Origin: Lachnospiraceae bacterium
GTDB lineage: Bacteria > Bacillota > Clostridia > Lachnospirales > Lachnospiraceae
Assembly (NCBI GenBank): GCA_017621815.1
Contig: JAGASK010000022.1
Span: 1-60,384, forward strand
DNA length: 60,384 nt
Reading direction: 5' to 3'
This document shows positions 1-40,563 of the stretch, piece after piece. Within the stretch, counting starts at the first letter, position 1; the number at the start of each line of letters is the position of its first letter. Made by a program: the position numbers and the translations under genes. Below the pieces are notes generated by a model. That model ran no database searches, was not told the DNA's origin, and worked only from the letters and a program-made list of their open reading frames with translations.

Positions 1-377
1 TGTCCATCGTGAGGTGGAATCTGAAGGAAGTTGGATGTGGGAAACACACTAACCCACGGGCAAATCTCTGGTCTGACGAACAGAAATCACATATAAGGTC
101 ATGCATGAGGGTAAGGCTGCAACCCAAGTCGAAGCCCTATAACTACACGGAATCATGCATGATAAATGTGGCAGATGGATGGAGAGAAGGAAACGTGTGG
201 TACCTAGGGAGGTCTGTGTGATACGCTCCGAAAAGAGCAACCAACATTGAGAAGTGTTGCTGAACACACAGAAGTCAGCAGAGGTCATAGTAGCCAAATA
301 GAACAAGTTCTATTCGAGGTGAAGGACTGAATCAGTAGGAGTCTTGAGTATGACCGAGAAAGGAGGAATGACCGCTC

Positions 378-5704: not shown

Positions 5705-6718
5705 ATGGTTTCAATTAAAGAAGTGGCGCAGCGCGGTGGGGTATCAGTTGCCACAGTCAGTAAAGCATTAAATGATAAAAGTGATATTGGAGAAGAAACA
5801 AAAAAGAAAATCCGGGAAATTGCGGATGAAATGGGTTATCTGCCTAATGCTACAGCAAGAGCGCTTCGGTCGAAAAGAAGTTACAGCATAGGAGTATTAT
5901 TCGGTGATGAAGAAGGAACAGCGCTGACTGATGAATTTTTTCCGAAAGTGCTGAATGCATTTAAACTGGCTGTAGAGAAAAGGGGTTATGAAATTATTTT
6001 TATTAATAAAGAAATTGGAAATCATACCATGACCTACCTGGAGCATTGCCGGTATCGGGGAGTAGACGGAGTTGTGCTGGCGTATGCACCATTCTGGGAT
6101 CCGGAAGTGATAGAGCTCATAAAAAGTGACCTGCCGGTAGTAACTGTGGACCGTATTTTTAAAGAAAAGACTTCTGTTTGTTTTGATTATACGCAGGGAA
6201 TGCGGGATTTGGTCACTTATATTTATGAAAAAGGGCACCGGAGGATTGCTTATATTCATGGAGAGTGGCTGGAAGAAAGCATTACAAGCCAGCGGCTTGA
6301 CAGCTTTTATCAGACAATGGCGGATTTGGGACTTCAGGTTCCGGATGCTTACGTGAAAAAGGGGAAATACCTTGATTTCCGGTTGGCGGGAGAATTGACA
6401 GCGGGGCTTTTAGACCTTCCCGACCCGCCCACCTGTATTGTTTATCCTAATGATTTTTCGGCGCTGGGCGGAATCGGAATGATTTACAAAAGAAAGCTTG
6501 CCATTCCGGATGATATATCAGTAGCAGGTTATGATGGGATACCGCTTGCGGAAGCGACCACGCCGGAGCTTACCACATTGAAGCAGGATTCAGAAGGAAT
6601 GGGAGAAGCCATAGCGGAAAGGATTGTGGCGCTGATTGAAAATCCGGGAAAGGAGCCGGTTAAGAGGGTTGTGATAAAGGGAAGGGTGTCCTGCGGAAGT
6701 TCAGTAAAAAGCCTGTAA
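5705..6718 (+). CDS. LacI-family transcriptional regulator
   Basis: A 337-residue repressor-type protein. Residues 2-50 form the LacI helix-turn-helix and hinge (VSIKEVAQRGGVSVATVSKALN, then LPNATARALRS). A periplasmic-binding-like effector domain follows (SIGVLFGD, GVDGVVLAY, AYIHGEW, TSQRLDSF, PNDFSALGG, SVAGYDGIPLAE), the pattern for sugar-like or nucleoside-like ligands. It starts 93 bases after capA. The two ABC exporter genes begin 48 bases after it on the same strand, so it may be co-transcribed with them or control them, although LacI proteins more often govern sugar import or catabolism. Effector unknown. Confidence 0.93.
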   Translation: MVSIKEVAQRGGVSVATVSKALNDKSDIGEETKKKIREIADEMGYLPNATARALRSKRSYSIGVLFGDEEGTALTDEFFPKVLNAFKLAVEKRGYEIIFINKEIGNHTMTYLEHCRYRGVDGVVLAYAPFWDPEVIELIKSDLPVVTVDRIFKEKTSVCFDYTQGMRDLVTYIYEKGHRRIAYIHGEWLEESITSQRLDSFYQTMADLGLQVPDAYVKKGKYLDFRLAGELTAGLLDLPDPPTCIVYPNDFSALGGIGMIYKRKLAIPDDISVAGYDGIPLAEATTPELTTLKQDSEGMGEAIAERIVALIENPGKEPVKRVVIKGRVSCGSSVKSL

Positions 6719-6766
6719 ATCGGCACAGTAAATTCATGTTAATTATGCTTATGATGGGGGATATTT

Positions 6767-8599
6767 ATGAGGAAGAAAAAAGAAAATAAGAGGAAGCCCG
6801 GAGAGATTATCCGGAACAACTTGTATGCGATAAAGCTTTCCTGGAGTATCAGCAAAAGCCGGGTCATCAATGCCTTTTTCAGGAGGGTCTTTGTTTATTT
6901 TGAATGGGTATTTTTCAGCGCGTTTTTTCTGCGTTACATAGTGGATGCCCTGGATAAGAAAAAGGAGCCCGGTCATATTTTTGTTTTTATTGTTTCATGC
7001 GGCATTCTGTTTTTCTGCATTAACTTTTATAATAACTACACCGAAAATGTAATATTTCCGCTGACAGATATAAGATTGTACTGCGGGATATACAGGAAGC
7101 TTTATGCCAAGGCAAAGAATGTAGAGCTGCGCTGTTATGAAGATTCGGACTTTTATAACCGCTATACCATGGCTATTGATGACGCGGGAGAAAAGGTAAC
7201 AGTCATTATTGACAGTGTATGGGGAATTGTTACGGGAATTTTCGCGGTTGTTATGATATTCTATTCCATGTTTACGATTGCGCCGCTCTCTGTTTTGTTT
7301 ATTATTTCACCTTTAGTGGGAAACTTTCTGTTCGGGAATATTAAGAATAAACTGGAATTCAGGCGTTATCAGGAGAGCGCGCCCAATGACAAGGTGATGA
7401 ACTATGTAAACCGCGTCATGTATCTGCCGGATTATGCAAAGGAAATCAGGCTGTCGGATGTCTTTAATCTGTTAAGACACCAGTATGATGAAGCAACGGA
7501 CAGCAATATGAAGATTGCGGGGAAATATGCTTTTCCCATAGCAGGCATGGACTTATTGAGACTGACTTTTACATTTACAGTCATATTTGAGGGCGTGCTT
7601 TTGTTTGCAGTATATGAGAATATTGTGAAGGGCACAATATCACTGGCTGAACTGACGGTGATGACCAGCCTTATGGTATCGGCAACCTGGATTTTAATCG
7701 GTCTGTTTGGAAATGTTATGAATACCATTAAAAACGGTTTATTCATCAGCAATTTAAGAAATTTCCTGGAATATGAAGAGAAGATACCTGAAGACCAGGG
7801 CGGCATATTGCCGTCTGAGACGTTTACAGACATTGAATTTGACCACGTATCTTTTTCCTATCAGCAGGAAGAAACCATTAAGGACTTATCTTTCAGGATT
7901 CGGAAGGGAGAGATTGTGGCGCTGGTAGGGCACAATGGAGCGGGCAAGTCCACCATAGTCAAGCTTCTGCTTCGTTTGTATGACCCTACGGAGGGGGTTA
8001 TCCGTTTAAACGGCACAGATATCAGGGAATATGACCTGCAGGCATACAGGAGACTGTTTGCCACTGCTTTTCAGGATTACCGTATTTTCGGAATGACGGT
8101 TAAGGATAATGTGCTTATGGGTACACATCCCGAAAATGAGGAGGAGCTGGTTAAGGAGGCCCTTGAAAAAGCAGGAGTATATGAAAGAATCATGGCATTG
8201 CCGGAAGGCATCCATACCATGATGACAAAGGAGTTTGATGATAAGGGAGCTGTGCTTTCGGGCGGTGAAAGCCAGAAGGTTGCTGTGGCAAGGGCTTTTG
8301 TCAAGGAGTCGCCCATCAGGATTTTTGATGAGCCTTCCAGCGCCCTTGACCCTATAGCGGAATATGAATTATTTAACAGTATTATGGAGGACGGACAGGA
8401 GCACACCATGATATTCATTTCCCACCGACTTTCCTCCGTTAAGAATTCGGACAGGGTATTTATGCTTGAAAAAGGGAGGATTATAGAGGAAGGTACCCAC
8501 AGGGAGCTGATGGAAAAGGATGGAAGTTATGCAGAAATGTATAAAAAACAGGCAATGAACTATCTGGCAGTGGATACGGTGGAAGGGGTGGCATTATGA
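6767..8599 (+). CDS. ABC exporter half-transporter (membrane plus ATPase), first of a pair
   Basis: A 610-residue type IV exporter subunit. The N-terminal membrane domain (about residues 50-330, roughly six segments) is followed by an ATPase domain with Walker A GHNGAGKST, Q-loop FQDYRIF, signature LSGGESQK, Walker B/D-loop FDEPSSALDP and switch His in ISHRLS. All catalytic residues appear present. The signature is not the usual LSGGQ, and the partner shares this. The stop overlaps the next gene's start by four bases (ATGA), which implies translational coupling and a heterodimer. No peptide precursor, lanthipeptide enzyme or peptidase domain is seen beside it, so the substrate is unknown. Confidence 0.92.
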   Translation: MRKKKENKRKPGEIIRNNLYAIKLSWSISKSRVINAFFRRVFVYFEWVFFSAFFLRYIVDALDKKKEPGHIFVFIVSCGILFFCINFYNNYTENVIFPLTDIRLYCGIYRKLYAKAKNVELRCYEDSDFYNRYTMAIDDAGEKVTVIIDSVWGIVTGIFAVVMIFYSMFTIAPLSVLFIISPLVGNFLFGNIKNKLEFRRYQESAPNDKVMNYVNRVMYLPDYAKEIRLSDVFNLLRHQYDEATDSNMKIAGKYAFPIAGMDLLRLTFTFTVIFEGVLLFAVYENIVKGTISLAELTVMTSLMVSATWILIGLFGNVMNTIKNGLFISNLRNFLEYEEKIPEDQGGILPSETFTDIEFDHVSFSYQQEETIKDLSFRIRKGEIVALVGHNGAGKSTIVKLLLRLYDPTEGVIRLNGTDIREYDLQAYRRLFATAFQDYRIFGMTVKDNVLMGTHPENEEELVKEALEKAGVYERIMALPEGIHTMMTKEFDDKGAVLSGGESQKVAVARAFVKESPIRIFDEPSSALDPIAEYELFNSIMEDGQEHTMIFISHRLSSVKNSDRVFMLEKGRIIEEGTHRELMEKDGSYAEMYKKQAMNYLAVDTVEGVAL

Positions 8600-10422
8600 A
8601 TAAAAAGGACAATAGGATTAGCACAAAGCAGACTGTGAAGCAGGTCTTTGAAAATAATCTGTTCCTGATAAAGCTTTGCTTTAGCGCTTCGCCTCTTTAC
8701 ATAATTACCATGACACTGGATGCGGCGAGAAACCAGATTTCCATTTTCTTTGAGCATACTTATGGAATCGGATATGTGCTCGAGGCTGCCGAGTTTCACT
8801 ATCCCTTCCGGCAGGTGGCAGCTTTTCTTCTGATTCTGGCAGGCTGTATTACGCTGGGCATGTTATTTTCCGTCATTGTAACTGATTACTGGGCGGCAAG
8901 GGAGCTTCCCAAGGTACGCCGCAGGGTTAAGATGGCGCTTTATGAAAAGGCCAGGGACCTGGACCTTAAATGTTATGATGACCCTGATTATTATAATGAG
9001 CTTGTACTTGCCATATCGGAAGCAGACAAGCAGATTGACAGATGTGTCACATTTCTGCAGAATACGGCATCGGGGATTGCCGTGTTTGTTTCTACCGGAA
9101 TTTATTTTTTCAGCAAAGATAAGTTATCCATTGTGTTTGCGGCAGTATCCTTTTGTCTTTCCTTTTTCTTTAATCAGCTGTATAACAGGCTGTCCTATGA
9201 GATACGAATGAAAAGGAATCCCTTTGAACGGAAGCGGGATTATGTGAAAAGGGTCTTCTATTTAAGCGATTATGCAAAGGAACTCCGGCTGAATCCCCAG
9301 GTGTCGGATATTTTGTTTACGGATTTTGATAAAGCCAATGATGAAATTTATAAGGCTGAAAAGAATTATGCAAACCGCAGGTTTGCCTTAAGCTTTTTGT
9401 GCCGTTATGTGAGCAATTATTTTTTCAGTGATGTCCTTTATACTTCCTATCTTGTTTTTAAGGCGGCGGTAATCCATACGCTTTCTTACAGCAGTGTGGC
9501 AATTTTATATAATTCTTTCGGCAGGATGAAGCAGAGTATGAGCCTTTTTACAGATGTTTATCCTTATGCCAGTGAAACCAGCCTGTATGTGCAGAAGATT
9601 CGTGATTTCCTTGATTATGAGCCGGAAATCAAGAGCCGGAAAGGGCTCCCTTCGGCAAACCGGGCAAAGGCCCTTGAGTTAAAGCATGTATCTTTTGCCT
9701 ACAATAAAGCAGACGGCAATATTATTAATGATGTTTCCCTTTCCGTTATGCCGGGAGAAAAGATAGCGCTGGTGGGATATAACGGAGCAGGAAAAACTAC
9801 TTTGATTAAGCTTATTATGAGGCTTTATGAGGTGGCGGAAGGGGAAATCCTTGCGGACGGTATTGATATCCGGGATTATGATGTAGAGAAATACCGCCAT
9901 TCTATCGGAACAGTATTCCAGGATTTTAAGATTTTTGCGGGAACAGTAACGGAAAATGTCCTGCTTGACCTTGACAATGGAACTGAAAAGGAGAAGGTAA
10001 GGGATGCCCTTTGCCGCAGCGGGCTTGCAGAACGAATAGAAGGACTTCCTTATGGGTTGGATACCCAGCTGACCACAGAATTTGCAAAAGAAGGTGTGAA
10101 TCTTTCCGGAGGTGAGAGCCAGAAACTGGCAATCGGCAGGGTATTTTACAAGGATACAGGACTGATTATTTTAGATGAACCCTCCAGCGCCCTTGACCCC
10201 ATAGCGGAATACCAGCTGAATCATGCCATGCTTGAGGCTACGGAAAATAAAACGGTTATTTTTATTTCACACCGTTTATCGACCACCCGGCTTGCAGACC
10301 GTATTGTACTTTTGAAGGACGGCAGGATTGCAGAACAGGGAACCCATGAGGAGCTGCTTTTGCTGAACGGATGGTATGCACAGATGTGGCGGGCACAGGC
10401 AGGACAATATATAGAGGTGTGA
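8596..10422 (+). CDS. ABC exporter half-transporter (membrane plus ATPase), second of a pair
   Basis: A 608-residue partner of the preceding protein with the same architecture: six predicted membrane segments, then an ATPase domain with Walker A GYNGAGKTT, FQDFKIF, signature LSGGESQK, LDEPSSALDP and ISHRLS. Both halves keep a Walker B glutamate, so both ATP sites may work. Shared features (CYDDPDYYNELVLAI here, CYEDSDFYNRYTMAI in the partner) show that the pair arose by duplication. The gene begins inside the last codons of its neighbour. It is followed by an 80-base gap with a TATACAAT-like -10, so the operon probably ends here. Confidence 0.92.
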   Translation: MNKKDNRISTKQTVKQVFENNLFLIKLCFSASPLYIITMTLDAARNQISIFFEHTYGIGYVLEAAEFHYPFRQVAAFLLILAGCITLGMLFSVIVTDYWAARELPKVRRRVKMALYEKARDLDLKCYDDPDYYNELVLAISEADKQIDRCVTFLQNTASGIAVFVSTGIYFFSKDKLSIVFAAVSFCLSFFFNQLYNRLSYEIRMKRNPFERKRDYVKRVFYLSDYAKELRLNPQVSDILFTDFDKANDEIYKAEKNYANRRFALSFLCRYVSNYFFSDVLYTSYLVFKAAVIHTLSYSSVAILYNSFGRMKQSMSLFTDVYPYASETSLYVQKIRDFLDYEPEIKSRKGLPSANRAKALELKHVSFAYNKADGNIINDVSLSVMPGEKIALVGYNGAGKTTLIKLIMRLYEVAEGEILADGIDIRDYDVEKYRHSIGTVFQDFKIFAGTVTENVLLDLDNGTEKEKVRDALCRSGLAERIEGLPYGLDTQLTTEFAKEGVNLSGGESQKLAIGRVFYKDTGLIILDEPSSALDPIAEYQLNHAMLEATENKTVIFISHRLSTTRLADRIVLLKDGRIAEQGTHEELLLLNGWYAQMWRAQAGQYIEV

Positions 10423-10504
10423 TTTACAGTCAATAAATATGGATTTTCGAAAAGCTTTAGTATACAATAAATAGTGATACTGTAGGATAGGAGTCAGAAA
10501 GCAT

Positions 10505-11461
10505 ATGAAAATTGTAATTTTAGAAAGAAACAGCGTGGGAACCGATGTTTCCGTGGATGAAATCAGTACATACGGAGAAGTGGCAGTTTACCGCAATACA
10601 ACAAAAGAAGATGTGTCAGAAAGAGTTAAGGATGCGGAAATTATTGTTGCAAACAAGGCACCGCTGAATGCAGAGACCTTAAAGGATGCACAGAATGTAA
10701 AGCTGATTTGCGAGTTTGCAACGGGCTATGACAATGTTGACCTTGAGTATTGCAGGAGCAGGGGAATTAAGGTTGCCAATGTGGTAAATTATTCTACCGA
10801 TGCGGTAGCCCAGCATACTTTTGCCCTCTGTCTGTATATTCTGGAAAAACTGAACCACTATGATAATTATGTGAAATCCGGAGAATATGCGGCACAGGAC
10901 AGGTTTTCCAATTTTGATATTCCTTATACGGAGCTGGCGGGCAAGACCTGGGGAATTATCGGTATGGGAAATATCGGCAGGAAGGTGGCGGAAATAGCAA
11001 AGGCTTTCGGCTGTCGTGTCATATTTTATTCCGTTACGGGAAAAAGCAGCTGCACGGAGTATGAAAGAGTGGATTTTGACACACTGCTTGCGGAATCCGA
11101 TTTTCTGTCGCTGCACTGTCCTTTAAGTGACATTACAAGAAATCTGATAAATCTGGATGCCCTGAAAAAAATGAAGAAAACGGCAATTCTCATTAATGTG
11201 GCAAGAGGTCCTGTTGTAAATGATGAAGACCTGTATACTGCCCTGACTGAAAATTATATTCTGGGCGCGGGACTGGATGTAACGGGTACGGAGCCTATGA
11301 AGGACAGCAATCCCTTAAGCAAGATTACGGACAGCAGCCGTCTGATTATTACACCTCATATGGCATGGGCAAGTATTGAAGCCAGAACCAGATGTGTTTC
11401 GGAAACCTGCAAAAATATTGAAGCCTATTTGAAGGGTGAGGAAAGAAATATTGTTTCTTAA
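10505..11461 (+). CDS. D-2-hydroxyacid dehydrogenase (NAD-dependent)
   Basis: A 318-residue enzyme of the D-isomer-specific 2-hydroxyacid dehydrogenase family, which interconverts 2-oxoacids and D-2-hydroxyacids in the cytoplasm. The NAD-binding Rossmann motif GMGNIGRKVAE is at about residues 157-167. The catalytic Arg lies in NVARGPVV, the Glu in GTEP and the His in PHMAW. Overall features resemble glycerate/hydroxypyruvate reductases, but substrate choice cannot be read from sequence. It starts with a good AGGAG site and sits 22 bases before the deaminase gene, so it is likely the first gene of an operon with the two SAH-recycling genes. Confidence 0.9.
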   Translation: MKIVILERNSVGTDVSVDEISTYGEVAVYRNTTKEDVSERVKDAEIIVANKAPLNAETLKDAQNVKLICEFATGYDNVDLEYCRSRGIKVANVVNYSTDAVAQHTFALCLYILEKLNHYDNYVKSGEYAAQDRFSNFDIPYTELAGKTWGIIGMGNIGRKVAEIAKAFGCRVIFYSVTGKSSCTEYERVDFDTLLAESDFLSLHCPLSDITRNLINLDALKKMKKTAILINVARGPVVNDEDLYTALTENYILGAGLDVTGTEPMKDSNPLSKITDSSRLIITPHMAWASIEARTRCVSETCKNIEAYLKGEERNIVS

Positions 11462-11483
11462 AGAAAAATAACGGAGGATTTTT

Positions 11484-12785
11484 ATGGGAATTGTTTTAAA
11501 AAATATTTCGGCAATTCTGCCAGACAAAGATAAGGATGAAGTGAAGGAAACCAGTATTTATATTGAAGGGAACAGGATTGCTGCTATAGGAGAAAAGCCG
11601 GAAGGCTTTACAGAGGATAAGGTGATTGACGGCAGGGACAAGCTGGTTATTCCGGGACTGATTAATTGTCATACCCATTCTTATATGGCATTTATGAGAA
11701 ATGTAGCGGATGATCTGTCCTTTATGGACTGGCTGTTTGGAACCATTGACCCTATTGAACAGCAGATGACGGATGAGGATACTTACTGGGGAGCATGTCT
11801 TGCCATTATTGAAATGATGAAAAGCGGAACTACCTGCTTTAATGATATGCAGATGAACATTCATCAGACAACCAGGGCGGTAAAGGAGTCCGGCATGAGG
11901 GCTGTTATCTGCAGGGGGCTGGTTGGAAGCGGCAATGATGAGGCAGGACAGATCCGGTTAAAACAGGCATATGAGGAAAGAGATGCTGCCAGGGATTGTG
12001 ACAGGCTGAGCTTTGCATTAGGACCCCATGCGCCTTATACCTGTGATGATGGCTTTATGAGGATCGTGTCTGAGGAAGCAAAAAAGAATCATATGCGGAT
12101 TCATGTGCATTTATCCGAAAGCGTCAGTGAAATAGAACAGATTCGGGAAAAATACGGCTGTACTCCCATTGAAATGGCCGATAAAAACGGATTGTTTGAT
12201 GTGCCTGCAATCGCAGCCCACTGTGTACAGGCAACAGACAGTGATATTGATATTTTAAAAGAAAAAGGAGTCAGCGTAGTTACCAATCCTGCCAGCAACA
12301 TGAAGCTTGGCAATGGCTTTGCCCCTGTGGCAAAAATGCTGGAAAAGGGAGTGAATGTGTGTCTTGGAACAGACGGGGCAGCGTCCAATAACAGTCTTAA
12401 TATGTTCCATGAACTGAGCCTTCTGACCTTAATCCATAAGGGCGTCAATAAAACTCCCCAGTGTATCAGCGCAAGAGAAGGCTTCCGTATTGCAACTATT
12501 AACGGAGCTAAGGCCCTTGGGCTTGAGAGAGAAATCGGTACGATTGAGGCGGGTAAAAAGGCAGACCTTGCCATTCTGAATTTGAATACACCTTCCCTTA
12601 CACCCAGAAATAACCTGATTGCGGGACTTTCCTATTCTGCAAACGGTTCTGAGGTGGAAACGGTTATTATTGACGGTAAAATTACCATGGAAGACAGAAA
12701 GATACTGACCATGGATGAAGAGCTGGTATATAAAAAAGTGAATGAAATCATAACCCGGATGGGACTGGATAAGAAAGAATATTAA
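11484..12785 (+). CDS. mtaD: S-adenosylhomocysteine / 5'-methylthioadenosine deaminase
   Basis: A 433-residue amidohydrolase-superfamily enzyme. Metal ligands are seen in NCHTH (His63, His65), HVHLSES, AAHCVQ and LGTDGAASNN. The pattern fits the MtaD/SsnA/TRZ branch, in which Thermotoga TM0936 was shown to deaminate SAH and MTA to the inosine forms. The next gene is an AhcY homologue, which supports SAH as the substrate: deamination to S-inosylhomocysteine, then hydrolysis. Start at 11484 with ribosome site CGGAGG. Alternatives are guanine or other aminohydrolases, but the neighbour makes these less likely. Confidence 0.88.
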   Translation: MGIVLKNISAILPDKDKDEVKETSIYIEGNRIAAIGEKPEGFTEDKVIDGRDKLVIPGLINCHTHSYMAFMRNVADDLSFMDWLFGTIDPIEQQMTDEDTYWGACLAIIEMMKSGTTCFNDMQMNIHQTTRAVKESGMRAVICRGLVGSGNDEAGQIRLKQAYEERDAARDCDRLSFALGPHAPYTCDDGFMRIVSEEAKKNHMRIHVHLSESVSEIEQIREKYGCTPIEMADKNGLFDVPAIAAHCVQATDSDIDILKEKGVSVVTNPASNMKLGNGFAPVAKMLEKGVNVCLGTDGAASNNSLNMFHELSLLTLIHKGVNKTPQCISAREGFRIATINGAKALGLEREIGTIEAGKKADLAILNLNTPSLTPRNNLIAGLSYSANGSEVETVIIDGKITMEDRKILTMDEELVYKKVNEIITRMGLDKKEY

Positions 12786-34768: not shown

Positions 34769-34813
34769 CATGGGCAATGCCGGCGGTGAAAAAGTTTGAA
34801 AGAGCGGTTGATT

Positions 34814-36544
34814 ATGGAATATAAGAAAAATGATATTGTTACCATAAAAATACAGGACATCAGCAATGATGGAGAAGGGATAGGAAAAATTGACGGCTAT
34901 CCCTTTTTTGTTAAGGATGCAGTTATCGGCGATACGGCATTGGTACGCATTACTAAGGTAAAGAAAAATTACAGCTTCGGAAGATTAGAGAAGGTAACAG
35001 AGCCTTCTGCGTTTCGTGTGGAGCCGGTTTGTCCCATTCATAAGCAGTGTGGCGGCTGTCAGATACAGGCAATGGATTATAAAAAGCAGCTTGAGTTCAA
35101 AGAATCAAAGATTAAAAATAATCTTGTCCGTATCGGCGGTTTTGCGCCGGAATTTGTGGACAGTGTAATGGAGCCTATAGCTGGTATGGAATATCCCTTC
35201 CGGTACAGGAACAAAGCTCAGTATCCTATCGGAACTGACAGGGATGGAAATCCGGTTACCGGATTTTATGCAGGCAGAACTCACAGTATTATTCCGAATA
35301 CGGATTGCTATCTGGGAGCGGAGGAGAACAAGGAAATTCTGGAGATTATTTTAAGCTACATGAAAGAAAATCATGTGGCTGCTTATGATGAAAATACGGG
35401 AACGGGTCTGATTCGCCATGTGTTGATTCGTAAGGGTTTTACCAGTGGGGAGCTGATGGTATGTCTGGTGGTTAACCGGGCAGGAAAGCAGGCGGATAAG
35501 AGGTTAAAGCAGTATCTTCCAAAGCAGGATAAGCTGACAGGGGCGCTTTCCAAGGTTCCGGGCATGACAAGTATTTCTGTCAGCATAAATACGGAAAATA
35601 CAAATGTAATCATGGGCAAAGAGGTTTTCACTATTTGGGGAAAGGACAGGATTAGAGATACGATTCATGTAAGAGACAGTGTAAATGGCTTTGCGCTGAC
35701 AGGAAAGGGGATTACCTTTTCCATTTCGCCATTATCCTTCTATCAGGTGAATCCTGTTCAGACAGAAAAGCTGTACAGTCTTGCCCTGGAGTACGCACAG
35801 CTTACCGGGAAGGAAACGGTATGGGATTTGTACTGCGGCATAGGCACCATTTCTTTATTCCTGGCAGGAAAGGCGAAGCAGGTATATGGTGTGGAGATTG
35901 TTCCCCAGGCCATAGAGGATGCCCGGGAAAATGCCCAAAATAACGGCATCGAAAATGCAAAATTCTTTGTGGGCAAAGCGGAAGAGGTTCTGCCTGAGAA
36001 ATATGAAAAGGAAGGCATTTTTGCAGATGTGATTGTGGTTGACCCACCCAGGAAGGGTTGTGACAGTGCCTGCCTTGAAACCATGCTTAAGATGCAGCCG
36101 GAGCGGATTGTGTATGTGAGCTGCGACAGCGCTACACTGGCAAGGGATTTGAGGATATTGTGCGATGGCGGGTATGAGGTGAAGAGAGTCAGGGGCGTGG
36201 ACCAGTTCGGGATGACGGTGCACGTTGAAACGGTTGTACTTTTGGGTAGGAAAAAATCGACTGATAATATAGAGTATAGTTATATAGATTATAAGCCTGC
36301 TGATTCTAGCTGTTTAGATAACTTGACTATGCGTGTGACATATGCAGAAATCAAGGCGTGGATACTTGAAAAATACGGGCTTAAAGTTTCAAATCTTTAT
36401 ATAGCACAGATGAAGGATAAATGTGGTCTGTATAAGAGAGATAACTATAATTTACCGAAATCAGAAGATGCAAGGCAGCCACAGTGTCCGACTGGAAAGG
36501 AAGCAGCTATTATAGATGCGTTTAAACATTTTAGGATGATATAG
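34814..36544 (+). CDS. rlmD: 23S rRNA (uracil-C5)-methyltransferase RlmD with replaced C-terminal tail
   Basis: About 576 residues. The N-terminal TRAM RNA-binding domain is followed by the iron-sulfur cysteines (CPIHKQCGGCQ), SAM motif WDLYCGIGTIS, VVDPPRKGCD and catalytic Cys in YVSCDSATLARD. This enzyme makes m5U in 23S rRNA. The normal protein would end shortly after VHVETVVLL. Here it continues for about 100 residues (YAEIKAWILEKYGLKVSNLY, CGLYKRDNYNLPKSED, AFKHFRMI) in visibly AT-richer DNA. A second, orphan copy of the normal end lies at 38600-38638, so the tail was probably brought in by an inserted element. ATG 34814 is chosen; an in-frame TTG at 34796 is possible. Confidence 0.92.
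   Translation: MEYKKNDIVTIKIQDISNDGEGIGKIDGYPFFVKDAVIGDTALVRITKVKKNYSFGRLEKVTEPSAFRVEPVCPIHKQCGGCQIQAMDYKKQLEFKESKIKNNLVRIGGFAPEFVDSVMEPIAGMEYPFRYRNKAQYPIGTDRDGNPVTGFYAGRTHSIIPNTDCYLGAEENKEILEIILSYMKENHVAAYDENTGTGLIRHVLIRKGFTSGELMVCLVVNRAGKQADKRLKQYLPKQDKLTGALSKVPGMTSISVSINTENTNVIMGKEVFTIWGKDRIRDTIHVRDSVNGFALTGKGITFSISPLSFYQVNPVQTEKLYSLALEYAQLTGKETVWDLYCGIGTISLFLAGKAKQVYGVEIVPQAIEDARENAQNNGIENAKFFVGKAEEVLPEKYEKEGIFADVIVVDPPRKGCDSACLETMLKMQPERIVYVSCDSATLARDLRILCDGGYEVKRVRGVDQFGMTVHVETVVLLGRKKSTDNIEYSYIDYKPADSSCLDNLTMRVTYAEIKAWILEKYGLKVSNLYIAQMKDKCGLYKRDNYNLPKSEDARQPQCPTGKEAAIIDAFKHFRMI
36220..36228 (+). repeat. Left copy of 9-bp direct repeat at the rlmD insertion site
   Basis: GCACGTTGA, inside rlmD codons for VHVE. 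The same nine bases occur at 38599-38607, where they start the orphan 3' end of rlmD. They could be the recombination core. Confidence 0.6.
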
Positions 36545-36569
36545 TTTTTATTCTTCACTTAACACGAGG

Positions 36570-36589
36570 CAACCACGTTAATGTGGTTG
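36570..36589. repeat. Short hairpin after rlmD
   Basis: CAACCAC pairs with GTGGTTG across GTTAAT. It lies 26 bases after the rlmD stop. No proper T-tract follows, so terminator function is uncertain. The rest of the 87 bases between rlmD and the decayed gene shows nothing recognisable. Confidence 0.4.
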
Positions 36590-36631
36590 TAACACTTTTC
36601 AAATATAAAGGGTTACAGGAAAAGGCATTGA

Positions 36632-37177
36632 TTATCAAGTCTATTTGCGGTTGGTACTACTCCGGAGGCATATGATAGAGAAGTACAGTTTTGCAGAAAT
36701 AATCCTAATATTAAAGTTGGGTTAGGGATGCATCCACAATTAATTTCTAGTGGCTATGATGATATCGGGTTATTTAAATCTCTATTTGAAAGAAGTCATT
36801 ATATCGGTGAAATAGGACTGGATTTTAGCAGAGAATATGTTCAAACCAGAGAAACACAAATAAAAGTGTTTCGTGAGATTATCAAGTTATGTGAAAAACA
36901 TGGGGGAAAGGTGGTTTCCCTTCATTCCCTTAAAGCAGTAAATTTGATGACTGAAATTTTGAAAGAATCTAAAATGCAAAAAAACAATATATATATCTTT
37001 CATTGGTTTACAGGATCTATACCACAGTTGGAGAAAGTAATAGAATTAGGATGTTGCTTTTCAATTAATCCAAGGATGTTAAAAGCAAAATCAGGAATAG
37101 AGGTAGTAAAAAAAGTGCCGATTAGTCGTATGCTGTTGGAAACAGATGTACCATTTATATTCACAGTTCGTTACTGA
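36632..37177 (+). pseudogene. Truncated TatD-family DNase, QatD-like remnant
   Basis: The reading frame is open from 36632 after a stop, without a start codon at its head; the first ATG is at 36728. It encodes FAVGTTPEAYDREVQFC, VGLGMHPQL, IGEIGLDFSREY, VVSLHSLKA, FHWFTGSIPQLEKVIELG, then SRMLLETDVPF. This is a TatD metal-dependent DNase of the kind found as QatD in the QatABCD anti-phage system. The N-terminal strand with the HxH metal ligands is missing, and the frame ends right after ETDVPF, short of the normal C-terminus. No qatA, qatB or qatC is present. It is a decayed leftover of a defence gene. Confidence 0.75.
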
Positions 37178-37304
37178 ATGCTTGTAAGTTTTATCAATGG
37201 TGAGGGAAGAGTTACCTACATGATTGCTACGATAAGTGAATATATTATCTAAAATGGTATCAAATAGAAAAATTTGCATATACTGTAATAACTGTAAAAA
37301 CTGC

Positions 37305-37333
37305 TTGACATGAAGTTTATGGTCGGGTACGAT
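37305..37333 (+). promoter_or_regulatory. Strong sigma-A promoter for the AbiF-associated RNA
   Basis: TTGACA (37305-37310), a 17-base spacer and TACGAT (37328-37333). The -35 is perfect. Transcription should start near 37340, at the head of the structured RNA. Confidence 0.75.
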
Positions 37334-37339
37334 AAATGC

Positions 37340-37407
37340 AGTGATCGCGTTGCAGAAACCTGTGAGGCCTGCGACCGGGGGAGAGCCTGCGGGGTCTCCT
37401 CTTTTTA
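37340..37407 (+). ncRNA. Structured RNA upstream of abiF-like gene (candidate abiF RNA / RNA antitoxin)
   Basis: Starting about seven bases after a strong promoter, the transcript would fold into two hairpins. The first is GTTGCAG (37349-37355) with CTGCGAC (37369-37375), with an inner CCT/AGG stem. The second is GGAGA (37380-37384) with TCTCC (37395-37399), extended inward by CC/GG and followed by CTTTTT, i.e. an intrinsic terminator. The AbiF-like gene begins 20 bases later with its own AAGGAG. A conserved abiF RNA motif upstream of Abi_2 genes is known, and AbiF-type proteins have been described as working with a non-coding RNA. Assignment to that motif is from context; I could not compare to a covariance model. 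Confidence 0.65.
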
Positions 37408-37426
37408 CTTTAAGGAGATATTCAAT

Positions 37427-38365
37427 ATGCTAAAGATTTTTTTGAATTATGATCAGCAAATAGAAAAACTGAAGAATGAGAAAAATCTACAGATTGATGA
37501 TACGGTATATGCTAAGGATATTTTAATGCAAATGAGCTACTATTCATTAATCGGAGGGTATAAGGATATCTTTAAAAATCCGACAACCAAGAAATATAAG
37601 GATGGAACGCGGTTTGAGGATATTGTAGAGTTATATTATTTTGATGAATCCTTAAGGCAGTTGTTTTTGAGGTATCTCATTAAAGTGGAAAATGAAATAA
37701 AGTCACAAGTTTCCTACTATTTTACGGAAAAGAATGGTGAGAACCAAAAGGAATATCTTGATACCGCAAATTATAATTATGTGGGCAAGAAAAATCAAAG
37801 AGATATTAATCGTTTAATAAAAATTTTAGAAGGATATGTTACTAAACCGACGGATTATCACTATATAAATCATGCACAGAAAAAATATGGAAATGTTCCA
37901 TTGTGGGTACTGACAAATGCGTTAACATTCGGTAATATTTCAAAAATGTATATGTTGCTTCCACAAGATATACAGATTAAGGTCAGTAGGAATTATCCGT
38001 GTATCAATGAAAGCCAAATGACTTCTATGTTGGCAGTAATGGTAAAATTCAGAAACGTTTGTGCACATGGAGAGCGATTGTTTACATATAGAACCGTTGA
38101 TAGCATTCCGGATTTACCAATGCATAAGAAATTAGGCATAGCTCAAAAAGGCACACAATATATAAATGGAAAAAATGATTTGTTCTCAGTTGTAATTGCT
38201 TTAAGGTATCTTTTAAACGATGGTTGGTATAGGGAATTTATAAAAGAACTTAAAGTTCTGATTGATAAGTATCTTAAGAAACACGACAGTATAGCAGAAC
38301 AAGAATTATATGAAAAAATGGGATTTCCAGAAAACTGGAGAAAGATAACCAGGTACAGGAAATAG
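37427..38365 (+). CDS. AbiF/AbiD-type abortive infection protein (Abi_2, HEPN)
   Basis: A 312-residue Abi_2 family protein. The family N-terminus is LNYDQQIEKLKN, then LMQMSYYSLIGGYKDIF and FDESLRQLFLRYLIKVENEIKSQV (here split for reading). Near residue 209 is KFRNVCAHGERLF, a HEPN RNase motif RxxxxH (Arg209, His214). It is therefore a likely ribonuclease toxin acting against phage-infected cells. ATG 37427 is chosen for its AAGGAG site; the same frame is open back to 37310, but that part overlaps the promoter and the structured RNA. Its low-GC composition differs from the flanks. It sits in the rlmD insertion beside a QatD remnant, supporting a defence role. Confidence 0.85.
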   Translation: MLKIFLNYDQQIEKLKNEKNLQIDDTVYAKDILMQMSYYSLIGGYKDIFKNPTTKKYKDGTRFEDIVELYYFDESLRQLFLRYLIKVENEIKSQVSYYFTEKNGENQKEYLDTANYNYVGKKNQRDINRLIKILEGYVTKPTDYHYINHAQKKYGNVPLWVLTNALTFGNISKMYMLLPQDIQIKVSRNYPCINESQMTSMLAVMVKFRNVCAHGERLFTYRTVDSIPDLPMHKKLGIAQKGTQYINGKNDLFSVVIALRYLLNDGWYREFIKELKVLIDKYLKKHDSIAEQELYEKMGFPENWRKITRYRK

Positions 38366-38389
38366 TGAAAATATAAAATGGTCGGAATC

Positions 38390-38423
38390 AAGTCTCCAAG
38401 TCTAAGGATTTGGGGGCTTTCTT
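38390..38423 (+). terminator. Intrinsic terminator after abiF-like gene
   Basis: AAGTCTCCAA (38390-38399) pairs with TTGGGGGCTT (38410-38419) including G-U pairs, followed by TCTTCT. It lies 25 bases after the stop codon. Confidence 0.7.
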
Positions 38424-38694
38424 CTGCCCATTTTGATTTCGGAAAGCCTATCCGAAAAAGCAAAACTATGGTACAATGGCAGGTGCATTAGTGTGCAGTA
38501 TGCCATTTGTGCAGTTCCGTTATGGGACTATTGCATTATTTTTGAATCCAAGGCTTAATGGAAAACCAAGGTTTGTGCATCTAAATTGCACGCTCATGGC
38601 ACGTTGAGAGTGTCGCTCTGCTTGTTAAGAAACGTTGATTTTCCGGGATTTTCAGGTATTTCAGAGAAATTCAGCAGAATTAATAGTCTGACTT
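38424..38694. other. Gene-poor gap containing the right end of the rlmD insertion
   Basis: No credible gene is seen. There is a TACAAT-like box near 38471-38477 and a 43-codon frame without a ribosome site that ends inside the right repeat. The orphan rlmD end occupies 38599-38638. Beyond it the DNA looks like ordinary intergenic sequence leading to the diguanylate cyclase promoter. Confidence 0.6.
38599..38638 (+). pseudogene. Orphan 3' end of rlmD (right boundary of insertion)
   Basis: Starting in the repeat GCACGTTGA, the + strand reads HVESVALLVKKR and a TGA stop at 38636-38638. The intact rlmD has HVETVVLLGRKK at the matching place (36221 on). The codons differ (GAG AGT here, GAA ACG there), so this is the displaced original ending, not a fresh copy. 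The codons before it do not match RlmD, placing the junction at the repeat. Confidence 0.8.
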
Positions 38695-38748
38695 TTGAAC
38701 ACAGATGAACATTTAGGGTACAATTTATAATCTGCAATTTTGCAGATT
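38695..38748 (+). promoter_or_regulatory. Promoter plus downstream palindrome for the diguanylate cyclase
   Basis: TTGAAC (38695-38700), an 18-base spacer and TACAAT (38719-38724). Just after it, AATCTGCAA (38729-38737) faces TTGCAGATT (38740-38748), a perfect 9-bp palindrome placed at or just after the start site, where a repressor would block transcription. The leader to the ATG is about 120 bases. Confidence 0.55.
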
Positions 38749-38850
38749 GTACTTGGAGTGGTATGGATTATTTTGGGCTTTTGTGATATTCTGTCTGTGT
38801 ATAATTTTCAGGTTCTATATTGGGATTTGTTTGAAAAAGGAGGGATGGGT

Positions 38851-40563
38851 ATGCATAATTTAGTGAAGCCGCTTTCGAGGCGATATAGTCTTTTTTTGTT
38901 TTTGGGTATACTTTTTACACTTCTTTTTACATTATTACCTTCTGTTTGTTATGAGTCCTGGATGCCCGGTGTTCCCAGTACTCCGGTAGAATGCATGGAT
39001 TCAGGCTGGACTGATGAGAACGGAGTATCCGTGGGGCAGCTCCCATGCAGTCTGGATTCGTCAGGCAGTACCCTGTGTCTTACACATGACCTTTCTGATA
39101 TAGTGACGGACGCCGGGAAGGTTTTTGTTTTTCGGACACGATATGAAACCATCCGTGTATGGGCGGATGACACATTGGTTTATGAGACTGCGCAAGGGGA
39201 GGAACATGCATTGGGCAGCAGGTGGCATTTTATTCCTGCAGGCAGCTGCAAAGGAGCATCGCTGCTCCGGGTCGAGTTTACAAGATACGAGGAAAAAAAT
39301 GACTGGTATTTATCCACGGTGTTTATAGATCATCCGGCGGCTGTCCTGATTTACCTTCTTGATGACTATGCTTCGGTTATTTTATTCTGTGTTTTCAGCG
39401 TGTTATTTACGTTGCTGCTGCTTTTTATTGTTATCTTTATGGCAAAGGAAAAAATGCCGGGTATGTCTGCAATTTTAGCATTGGCTGTTTTTGTTTTTCT
39501 TTCAGGCCAATGGGTTTTGCTGGATTCCAAGATTACGACACTGCTTGGCGGAAATTATGCCCTGACATATTTTTTCAGTTATTGTGTTTTTTATCTTCTG
39601 ATGGTTCCGTTTTTGTTGTATATTCAACTGATGCTGGACTGTAAAAATCGGATACTGCGTTATTTGCCATGGGCTTTTATAGGAAATGCTGTTGTCTGTA
39701 TGGGACTGCATCTTTTCGGAGTGGTTTCCATACAGAATACAACGGGTATCGTTCATATTTTAATGGTTTTAGCTATTTTTATCTCTACATGGGAATTATT
39801 CCACAGTGTCGTGAAATGGAGAGAAGGAAAGACCATTGTTACCTTTTATGGAATATTGCTTGTATATGCGGTAGGGCTGCTTTCGATTATTTTATACAAC
39901 GCCGGCTTTCTGCGGCCGGCTAACAATGCTGTGCTGTATTCGTGGGCATTACTTATTCTGATTCTCAGTATGTCGGTAGATGCAATTTTCTCGTTTGGTC
40001 GTATGTGGAAACAAAAGCAGTATATTGAGCACTATCGGCAGATGGCCATTCAGGACAGTATGACCCTGCTGAAGAATCGCAATGCTTATGAGCTGCATCT
40101 GCAGAAGATTGTATCAGATCCGCCCCGTAGGCTTACATTCATTCTTTTTGATGTGGACAATCTGAAAATGATTAATGATACATACGGTCATCATGTAGGG
40201 GATCAGATTATTTATTTGTCTGCACAATGTGTTCGTGAGATTTTTGAGCCTTATGGTAACTGCTATCGAATCGGAGGGGACGAATTTTGTGTGATATTGA
40301 ACTGTGCCGAAGATATTCCATCAAAGCTCAGTCAGTTTGATGTTCTTTTTAAAAGCAGGAGCAAGGATGTAATTCCCACTACTGTTTCTTATGGCTGGAA
40401 AGAAAAGGCCTTTGACAAAGGTGCGAAGGTTACGATGGAGGATATAGCTGCACTGCAGAACGAAGCGGACGAGAACCTGTATCGTCATAAAAAGGCAAAT
40501 AAAGCGGCTTTTATCAATAAAGAAAGCGCTGAGACAGTGAATGAGGTGCCGGGGCGTATTTAA
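38851..40563 (+). CDS. Membrane receptor diguanylate cyclase (7TM-type, GGDEF)
   Basis: A 570-residue enzyme predicted to make cyclic di-GMP from GTP. An N-terminal membrane segment and an extracytoplasmic beta-rich domain (about residues 35-155) precede seven membrane segments (about 165-390), as in 7TMR-DISM receptors. A GGDEF domain fills the rest, with FDVDNLKMINDTYGHHVGD and the active motif GGDEF at residues 475-479. The usual RxxD inhibitory site upstream of GGDEF is not seen (NCYRIGGDEF), so product inhibition may be weak. ATG 38851 is chosen because AAAGGAGGG lies eight bases upstream. Followed by a hybrid kinase gene. Confidence 0.88.
   Translation: MHNLVKPLSRRYSLFLFLGILFTLLFTLLPSVCYESWMPGVPSTPVECMDSGWTDENGVSVGQLPCSLDSSGSTLCLTHDLSDIVTDAGKVFVFRTRYETIRVWADDTLVYETAQGEEHALGSRWHFIPAGSCKGASLLRVEFTRYEEKNDWYLSTVFIDHPAAVLIYLLDDYASVILFCVFSVLFTLLLLFIVIFMAKEKMPGMSAILALAVFVFLSGQWVLLDSKITTLLGGNYALTYFFSYCVFYLLMVPFLLYIQLMLDCKNRILRYLPWAFIGNAVVCMGLHLFGVVSIQNTTGIVHILMVLAIFISTWELFHSVVKWREGKTIVTFYGILLVYAVGLLSIILYNAGFLRPANNAVLYSWALLILILSMSVDAIFSFGRMWKQKQYIEHYRQMAIQDSMTLLKNRNAYELHLQKIVSDPPRRLTFILFDVDNLKMINDTYGHHVGDQIIYLSAQCVREIFEPYGNCYRIGGDEFCVILNCAEDIPSKLSQFDVLFKSRSKDVIPTTVSYGWKEKAFDKGAKVTMEDIAALQNEADENLYRHKKANKAAFINKESAETVNEVPGRI

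What the first reader, a model, noticed from the sequence alone, without database searches (positions are those of the whole stretch)
36220..38638. A defence cargo element inserted into the 3' end of rlmD, shown by a displaced copy of the original gene end
Directly seen: rlmD reads HVETVVLLGRKK at 36221 and continues into a new tail. At 38600 the sequence HVESVALLVKKR-stop stands alone, and both begin in GCACGTTGA. The nucleotide differences (GAA ACG against GAG AGT) show that the orphan is the old native end. The DNA between is AT-richer and holds a QatD remnant, a structured RNA and an AbiF-like gene. From general knowledge, the rumA/rlmD 3' end is an integration site for mobile elements in Firmicutes. 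The lack of an integrase raises the question of how such cargo is exchanged.
Basis: partly seen in the sequence, partly recalled or inferred. Interest (0 to 1): 0.88.

Follow-up and report, generated by a model that had tools for sequence, protein, structure and literature searches.

The report
Stranded defence island in rlmD end
A piece of mobile DNA carrying a likely anti-phage toxin gene sits in the tail end of a ribosomal-RNA methyltransferase gene, whose original last twelve codons now lie 2.4 kb downstream; relatives suggest it is the leftover of a larger serine-recombinase island of a kind that carries different defence systems.

Summary
GCACGTTGA occurs in the window only at 36220 and 38599; the second copy opens an in-frame orphan rlmD end, HVESVALLVKKR-stop (38600-38638). 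The insertion reading holds and can be sharpened. The new rlmD tail (36229-36544) is the left arm of known rum-integrating elements: on plasmid pAPRE01 it lies directly behind a recombinase gene, and it occurs in Streptococcus rum phages. From 36637 on, the insert is the right part of another island. A more complete relative (CAJFQC010000003.1, chicken MAG) runs serine recombinase - qatABCD - ncRNA - abiF - right end and is 97% identical to the window over 1,320 bp. The window lacks the recombinase, qatABC and parts of qatD, so its missing integrase is best read as loss: a hybrid, CIME-like remnant. Loci with a complete or partial copy of this right end carry Gabija, Lamassu, SIR2-pAgo, IetAS, AbiLi, Qat or AbiF. 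18 of 20 tabulated right ends run in phase into an rlmD-type end, at least four of these being another element's arm. The right end is a covarying structure of about 230 nt without a credible Rfam match in nine relatives. No empty-site strain was found, so this is comparative inference.

The parts
34814..36228 (+). rlmD (23S rRNA m5U methyltransferase), chromosomal part up to the core
   Evidence: TIGR00479 E 5.7e-129. Start taken as the ATG at 34814; the listed ORF opens with TTG at 34796.
36220..36228 (+). left core GCACGTTGA (attL-like)
   Evidence: One of two copies in the window. DNA similarity of the 19 genus loci fetched to window rlmD ends between 36185 and 36244, inside a query that ran to 36260.
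36229..36544 (+). element-borne replacement tail of rlmD (T-type left arm)
   Evidence: Tail domain aligned with five genus tails; found in rum phages and behind the recombinase of plasmid pAPRE01. No Pfam match.
36545..36636 (.). 92-bp linker at the presumed deletion junction, with an inverted repeat at 36570-36589; origin not found
   Evidence: blastn against all fetched loci: apart from the window's own copy (L001) the best hit is 15 bp, E 0.23 (63 rows, best 25 looked at).
36637..37177 (+). qatD remnant: the first 26 codons missing, 111 bp (37 codons, in frame) missing near the 3' end, own stop kept
   Evidence: 86% identical to intact qatD of L152; sequences compared. ORF 36728-37177 matches QatD.
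37305..37333 (+). promoter-like TTGACA-17-TACGAT of the abiF ncRNA
   Evidence: Read in the sequence; TTGACA with TAAGAT in L152 and L028. Inference.
37334..37407 (+). predicted ncRNA with terminator hairpin; CCTGYGRGG at 37359 and 37386
   Evidence: Fold of 37300-37420 z -2.18, 6 of 200 shuffles as good. Repeats. No Rfam abiF match at E up to 5.
37427..38365 (+). abiF-like Abi_2 gene, 312 aa, intact; RNVCAH motif
   Evidence: PF07751, PADLOC AbiD, RNVCAH at residue 209. 91% aa to L028.
38390..38429 (+). terminator-like hairpin after abiF, start of the conserved right end
   Evidence: Conserved in the six genomes aligned.
38459..38599 (+). right-end structured module, shortened here (about 97 bp with the P1-P2 part missing against L152)
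   Evidence: Model R1 112.3 bits, but the window copy is one of the 17 training sequences. Covariation across copies. The window copy alone folds no better than shuffles, z -1.16. Missing stretch.
38599..38607 (+). right core GCACGTTGA (attR-like)
38600..38638 (+). orphan original 3' end of rlmD, HVESVALLVKKR-stop
   Evidence: analogous ends after the same right end elsewhere.

Best explanation
The 2.4-kb insert is the decayed, hybrid remnant of site-specifically integrated elements at the 3' end of rlmD. Integration cut the gene at the codons for His-Val-Glu. The incoming left arm gave rlmD a replacement tail and stop; the native last codons stayed at the far end. The left arm kept here (T-type tail) is that of rum-integrating ICEs and phages. 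Everything from the qatD remnant to the right core is the right part of a second island type: serine recombinase - qatABCD - ncRNA - abiF - structured right end. The likeliest history is tandem integration, then deletion from just behind the tail into qatD, which removed the recombinase(s) and qatABC. What remains is CIME-like: two core copies, defence cargo, no recognised integration or transfer gene. AbiF most likely acts as an RNA-cleaving HEPN abortive-infection toxin held in check by the RNA made just upstream. Shown: the cores, the orphan end, homology of both arms, the cargo order in a relative, what the window lacks against it. Inferred: tandem accretion, order of events, that this serine recombinase recognises this site, AbiF/RNA function, any present mobility.
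For: Cores and orphan end. More complete relative L152: recombinase with PF00239, PF07508 and PF13408, QatA-D and AbiD hits, 97% nt to the window over 1,320 bp. Same RNA and abiF with another rlmD tail and its own orphan end in G014 (86% nt over 1,206 bp). 18 of 20 tabulated right ends followed in phase by an rlmD-type end. T tail adjoining the recombinase on pAPRE01 and in rum phages. Tandem islands with two right ends 6.2 kb apart on one contig, and a right end followed by a T tail (L085). Published precedent: rumA/integrase 3'-end exchange (PMC4701971) and the CIME route (PMC5704250), passages read.
Against: No empty-site or intact strain of the same species was found; the downstream gene has only 31-65 bp matches elsewhere in the genus. 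No rlmD-family gene was found next to the island on L152's contig, and left of its recombinase lies an FtsX-like permease, so that island's left end is unseen. The T left arm and this right end were not seen together in an intact element. The 92-bp linker is unexplained. The own genome has no recombinase close to L152's, so present mobility is doubtful. Two of 20 right ends (L134, L135) do not run into an rlmD-type end.
Confidence: 0.85

Rival explanations
1. Integrase-free cassettes: the cargo unit with its structured right end is a mobile unit in its own right, moved in trans by a recombinase supplied elsewhere, much as integron cassettes are.
For: The same right end, complete or partial, closes very different cargo. 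Two islands lie in tandem on SVFD01000001.1. The same RNA, abiF and right end lie at rlmD in G014 and next to a different rlmD paralogue in G158 (there with a frameshifted abiF), and tblastn with the recombinase found nothing in either locus.
Against: A full-length recombinase lies left of qatA in L152, and recombinase fragments lie behind the left end in L121 and L153. The own genome has no close recombinase.
Confidence: 0.12
2. Cargo is exchanged mainly by homologous recombination between conserved rlmD bodies and conserved right ends, with no site-specific step in recent history.
For: Left tails and cargo combine freely: T, Y and M tails, and abiF with T in the window but Y in G014. Right ends are 68-91% identical between the query copy and other genomes.
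Against: Identity breaks close to the core at the right end, and several islands sit at rlmD-like paralogues of only about 30-40% protein identity (L109, L110, L113, L117, L121).
Confidence: 0.15
3. The tailed rlmD is ancestral and the 38600 match is chance or another gene.
For: A 9-bp repeat alone is not rare: 27 of 1404 rlmD 9-mers recur.
Against: Peptide score above all 200 shuffles; the same arrangement at 18 of 20 tabulated right ends; 11 of 22 readable genus rlmD genes end short.
Confidence: 0.02

Closest known systems
rumA-integrated ICEs and IMEs with a single serine integrase (Streptococcus; PMC4701971, PMC5704250, passages read) and rum prophages such as phi-SgaBSJ31_rum
   Same: Same target gene region, 3'-end exchange of the target, and the same tail domain fused to rum/rlmD.
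   Different: There the attR core lies inside the integrase gene; here the right core follows a noncoding structured module, and the related recombinase lies left of the cargo.
CIME (cis-mobilizable element)
   Same: Two core copies kept, no recognised integration or transfer gene, cargo retained.
   Different: The two arms come from different element types; mobilisation not shown.
AbiF_Cd with RNA antitoxin RCd22 (PMC12373285; abstract and three sections read)
   Same: Abi_2 protein with RxxxxH, and a predicted short RNA with promoter and terminator directly upstream.
   Different: The RNA does not match Rfam abiF at E up to 5; located in an rlmD island, not a prophage lysis module.
QatABCD
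   Same: qatD remnant in the window; all four genes in L152.
   Different: The window keeps no qatA, B or C and only a damaged qatD.

Membership tests
CIME | retains attL and attR | tested here: inconclusive
   Two identical 9-bp cores at the expected places, but the arms belong to two element types; recombination not testable.
CIME | lacks integration genes | tested here: met
   The tail, the qatD and the abiF ORF and the two antisense ORFs of 60 aa or more were scanned; only TatD/QatD and Abi_2 matched, besides two chance-level PADLOC rows at E 0.03-0.04. tblastn with the L152-type recombinase C-part gave no window hit.
CIME | lacks transfer genes | tested here: met
   Same scans; no relaxase or conjugation match in those ORFs.
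CIME | can be mobilised in cis | not testable with these tools
   Needs an excision assay.
rumA-type single-serine-integrase ICE | insertion in rumA/rlmD with exchange of the 3' end | tested here: met
   Replacement tail at 36229-36544 and orphan end at 38600-38638.
rumA-type single-serine-integrase ICE | attR inside the serine integrase gene | tested here: not met
   The right core follows a noncoding module with no integrase.
AbiF with RNA antitoxin | Abi_2 domain with HEPN-type RxxxxH | tested here: met
   PF07751, RNVCAH. That RxxxxH is the HEPN motif is recalled.
AbiF with RNA antitoxin | short RNA with terminator upstream of abiF | tested here: inconclusive
   Seen by reading and folding only; transcription not tested.
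AbiF with RNA antitoxin | Rfam abiF motif RF03085 | tested here: not met
   Not among matches up to E 5 in 36200-38800.
Qat system | four genes qatABCD | tested here: not met
   Only a qatD remnant in the window.

The most novel reading that the evidence does not exclude
The islands that target rlmD-family 3' ends in Lachnospiraceae and similarly labelled gut Firmicutes form one mobile family specialised in defence cargo, and their roughly 230-nt structured right end is an RNA (or a folded DNA site) that works in mobility or in gene expression at the junction: a new class of element-end RNA.
Probability: 0.3. Interest if true: 0.8.

Novelty: new variant of a known kind. Interest (0 to 1): 0.6.

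Why it matters
It extends a known ICE attachment gene to a set of rlmD-like paralogues in gut Firmicutes and shows islands there that share ends but differ in whole defence systems (Qat, AbiF, Gabija, Lamassu, SIR2-pAgo, IetAS, AbiLi). It gives a concrete case of defence genes outliving the element that brought them. The conserved right end gives a sequence handle for finding more such islands, and it is a structured element without a credible Rfam match that can be tested directly.

Tried and rejected
Rejected: chance repeat. Rejected as the main reading: an integrase-free cassette class, after the full-length recombinase was found in L152. A coding reading of the right end was considered and dropped: candidate small frames differ between copies, by reading. 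Empty site by downstream flank: only short matches of 31-65 bp in five other genus genomes. Rfam scans of the window, L028, L119, L120, L108, L145, L140, L087, L136 and L109 gave no credible match for the right end; the nearest were MIR3712, far below its gathering score, on the terminator hairpin (L108 E 0.031, window E 2), and a norovirus model on L087 at E 0.16. Right-end pattern in viral contigs: 0; right end by blastn in phages and plasmids: none. A broad DNA search in 397 family genomes gave 38 with a match, but most rows cover only the last 30-40 bases of the query, the rlmD end itself. An RNAalifold run on the first full-length alignment gave a poor joint structure, and the MAFFT alignment is out of register in the P5 stem. 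A first extraction script used a wrong pattern, corrected. Papers: the listings showed no work on rlmD/rumA as a defence hotspot; one search read passages of PMC6907783 and found no rumA in it. This is a limited, open-licence library.
Full report
1. The observation. rlmD carries GCACGTTGA at 36220 and continues past it into a new tail ending at 36544; the same nine bases return at 38599 and open HVESVALLVKKR-stop. These are the only two copies in the window on either strand. A repeated 9-mer by itself is not rare (27 of 1404 rlmD 9-mers recur in 36262-38700), but the peptide match scores 36 against a maximum of 30 in 200 shuffles (two-base blocks, not a strict dinucleotide shuffle). The insert is 34.1% G+C against 42.9% and 42.7% in the 10 kb either side and holds a QatD remnant and an Abi_2 gene.

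2. rlmD ends in the genus. Of 37 genus genomes (own included), 28 matched the rlmD 3' DNA. I read the ends in 22 of these 28; one was cut by its contig end (L007) and five were not fetched. Sorted by my own criteria: 6 bear the T tail (a domain with YIAQ), 3 the Y tail (..CGCIYG), 2 the M tail (..MQY.GKEK), 11 end short; one of the short ones (L012/L030) is followed by a frameshifted T tail. Short ends such as HVETVCLMSR are thus common, and the tails look replaceable.

3. What the tail is. The 97-residue tail has no Pfam match but aligns with five genus tails. tblastn found it in 10 phage records and 1 plasmid record, covering 43-76% of the query. On plasmid pAPRE01 a gene annotated as recombinase overlaps the core and the tail follows at once; in Streptococcus phage YS162 it is fused to rum, and phi-SgaBSJ31_rum carries part of it too. 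This fits the published exchange of 3' ends between rumA and a serine integrase (PMC4701971, passages).

4. The right end. In G014 (L028) the same RNA and abiF (86% nt over 1,206 bp) lie behind an rlmD with a Y tail, and the island ends in its own orphan end HVETVCLLSKQ-stop. Aligning six genomes shows a conserved right end that stops about CTCATGG|CA; beyond it the sequences differ. A pattern of 25 positions found 17 stretches in genome contigs: 14 in records labelled Lachnospiraceae, Agathobacter, Roseburia, Ruminococcus, Eubacterium, Clostridium porci or unclassified, 3 in Verrucomicrobia or Bacteroidales that I take as chance; 12 of the 14 continue in phase with an rlmD-type end. Two of the 14 (L143, L149) appear, from contig lengths, to be the contigs of L108 and L119. 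In a table of the window plus 19 loci, 18 of 20 do so; L134 and L135 do not. Of the 18, at least four are the Y or M arm of a further element (L136; L121, L145, L147), and L108 reads HCK in place of HCE. Left out of that table: L083, L085 and L110 (variant or shortened right ends, followed by an rlmD-type end or, in L085, a T tail, on reading), and L109, L112, L113, L114, L116, L117, L118, L122, L123 and L124 (partial modules; where I read on, I saw no rlmD-type end; L124 was not read).

5. The more complete relative. In CAJFQC010000003.1 (L152; record label uncultured Ruminococcus, chicken) the order is serine recombinase (546 aa; PF00239, PF07508, PF13408) - a gene without a family match - qatA, B, C, D - ncRNA - abiF - right end - HCEVVCLFSRG-stop. 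The window matches it at 97% over 1,320 bp (37167-38484), 86% in qatD (36637-37174) and 80% in the right end (38477-38601). Against L152 the window lacks everything left of codon 27 of qatD, 111 bp (37 codons, in frame) near the qatD 3' end, and about 97 bp of the right-end module. Left of the L152 recombinase lies an FtsX-like permease, so its left boundary is not defined. In Clostridium porci (L154) three serine recombinase genes lie in a row, the second short and the third with an in-frame stop, before a qat set that by ORF reading is damaged (the third was not scanned). The window's genome (91.55% complete) has no recombinase at E up to 1e-100 to the L152 protein; 5 of 37 genus genomes do.

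6. The island family. Loci with a complete or partial copy of this right end carry, by PADLOC: GajA and GajB (L153), LmuA and LmuB (L121, shortened right end), IetA and IetS (L146), a SIR2-pAgo protein and an Stk2-like kinase (L150, before a partial right end), AbiLi (L117, partial right end). Of the 20 proteins scanned in those two calls, 7 had no match at E up to 1e-5, so not all cargo is recognised defence. On SVFD01000001.1 two right ends lie 6.2 kb apart, each followed by an rlmD-type end, and a partial one lies further upstream. The M left end (coding ..VIMMQY..KEKK and a conserved flank) recurs in L121, L010, L142, L153, L147, L022 and L150; recombinase fragments follow it in L121 and L153. 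Several islands sit at rlmD-like paralogues of about 30-40% identity (L109, L110, L113, L117, L121).

7. The right end as a structure. A model (R1) of the last 139 positions was built from 17 sequences with a structure I wrote by hand from folds and column inspection. On 22 matches, 17 of them the training copies, 11 of 21 pairs have changes on both sides; 25 such cells against 7.4 in shuffles (0 of 500 reach it), and slid partners do far worse. Caveats: that alignment was fitted to the structure, and related sequences can exceed shuffles. Independently, MFE z-scores of 15 full-length copies run from -1.4 to -5.3; the shortened window copy gives -1.16, no better than shuffles. The reverse strand folds as well or better in three copies (L119, L087, L120), so RNA versus folded DNA is open. 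Rfam gave no credible match. In 397 family genomes R1 found 5, the own genome included (strict filters), so the family is not common at that sensitivity.

8. AbiF and its RNA. The abiF ORF is intact with RNVCAH. Upstream lie TTGACA-17-TACGAT, about 70 nt with two CCTGYGRGG copies, a terminator-like hairpin and a ribosome site, an order like that of C. difficile RCd22-abiF_Cd (PMC12373285; abstract and the sections on identification, ncRNA and complex structure read), where the RNA neutralises the toxin. Rfam's abiF family did not match here, so function is by analogy.

9. Verdict. An insertion at the rlmD 3' end with a displaced native end is well supported, short of an empty-site strain. The new part is what it came from: a defence-carrying serine-recombinase island family with a conserved structured right end, here reduced to a hybrid remnant.

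Noticed in passing
window 3-327: Group II intron domains at the window's start (Rfam RF02001 and RF01998).
   Followed up: no
L150 (G432:C11) 5742-11869: An Stk2-like kinase, a 468-aa protein with weak pAgo/SIR2-model matches and a 1071-aa SIR2-pAgo protein side by side upstream of a partial right end.
   Followed up: partly
L121 6451-6648 and 14011-14206: rlmD-paralogue end plus flank duplicated (90% identical) on both sides of a Lamassu island, probably two M left ends in tandem.
   Followed up: partly
L021 8527-8694 (coordinates on the rlmD-oriented strand): A second fragment of the T tail domain 7.3 kb behind the rlmD stop of G008, suggesting stacked insertions.
   Followed up: no
L085 (G058:C76), last 90 bases: A right end directly followed by the core and a T tail: the successor is another element's left arm, not a native end.
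   Followed up: no
window 38740-40563: The gene behind the insert, a membrane GGDEF-type protein by reading, has only matches of 31-65 bp in other genomes of the genus, so the right flank is itself poorly conserved.
   Followed up: no
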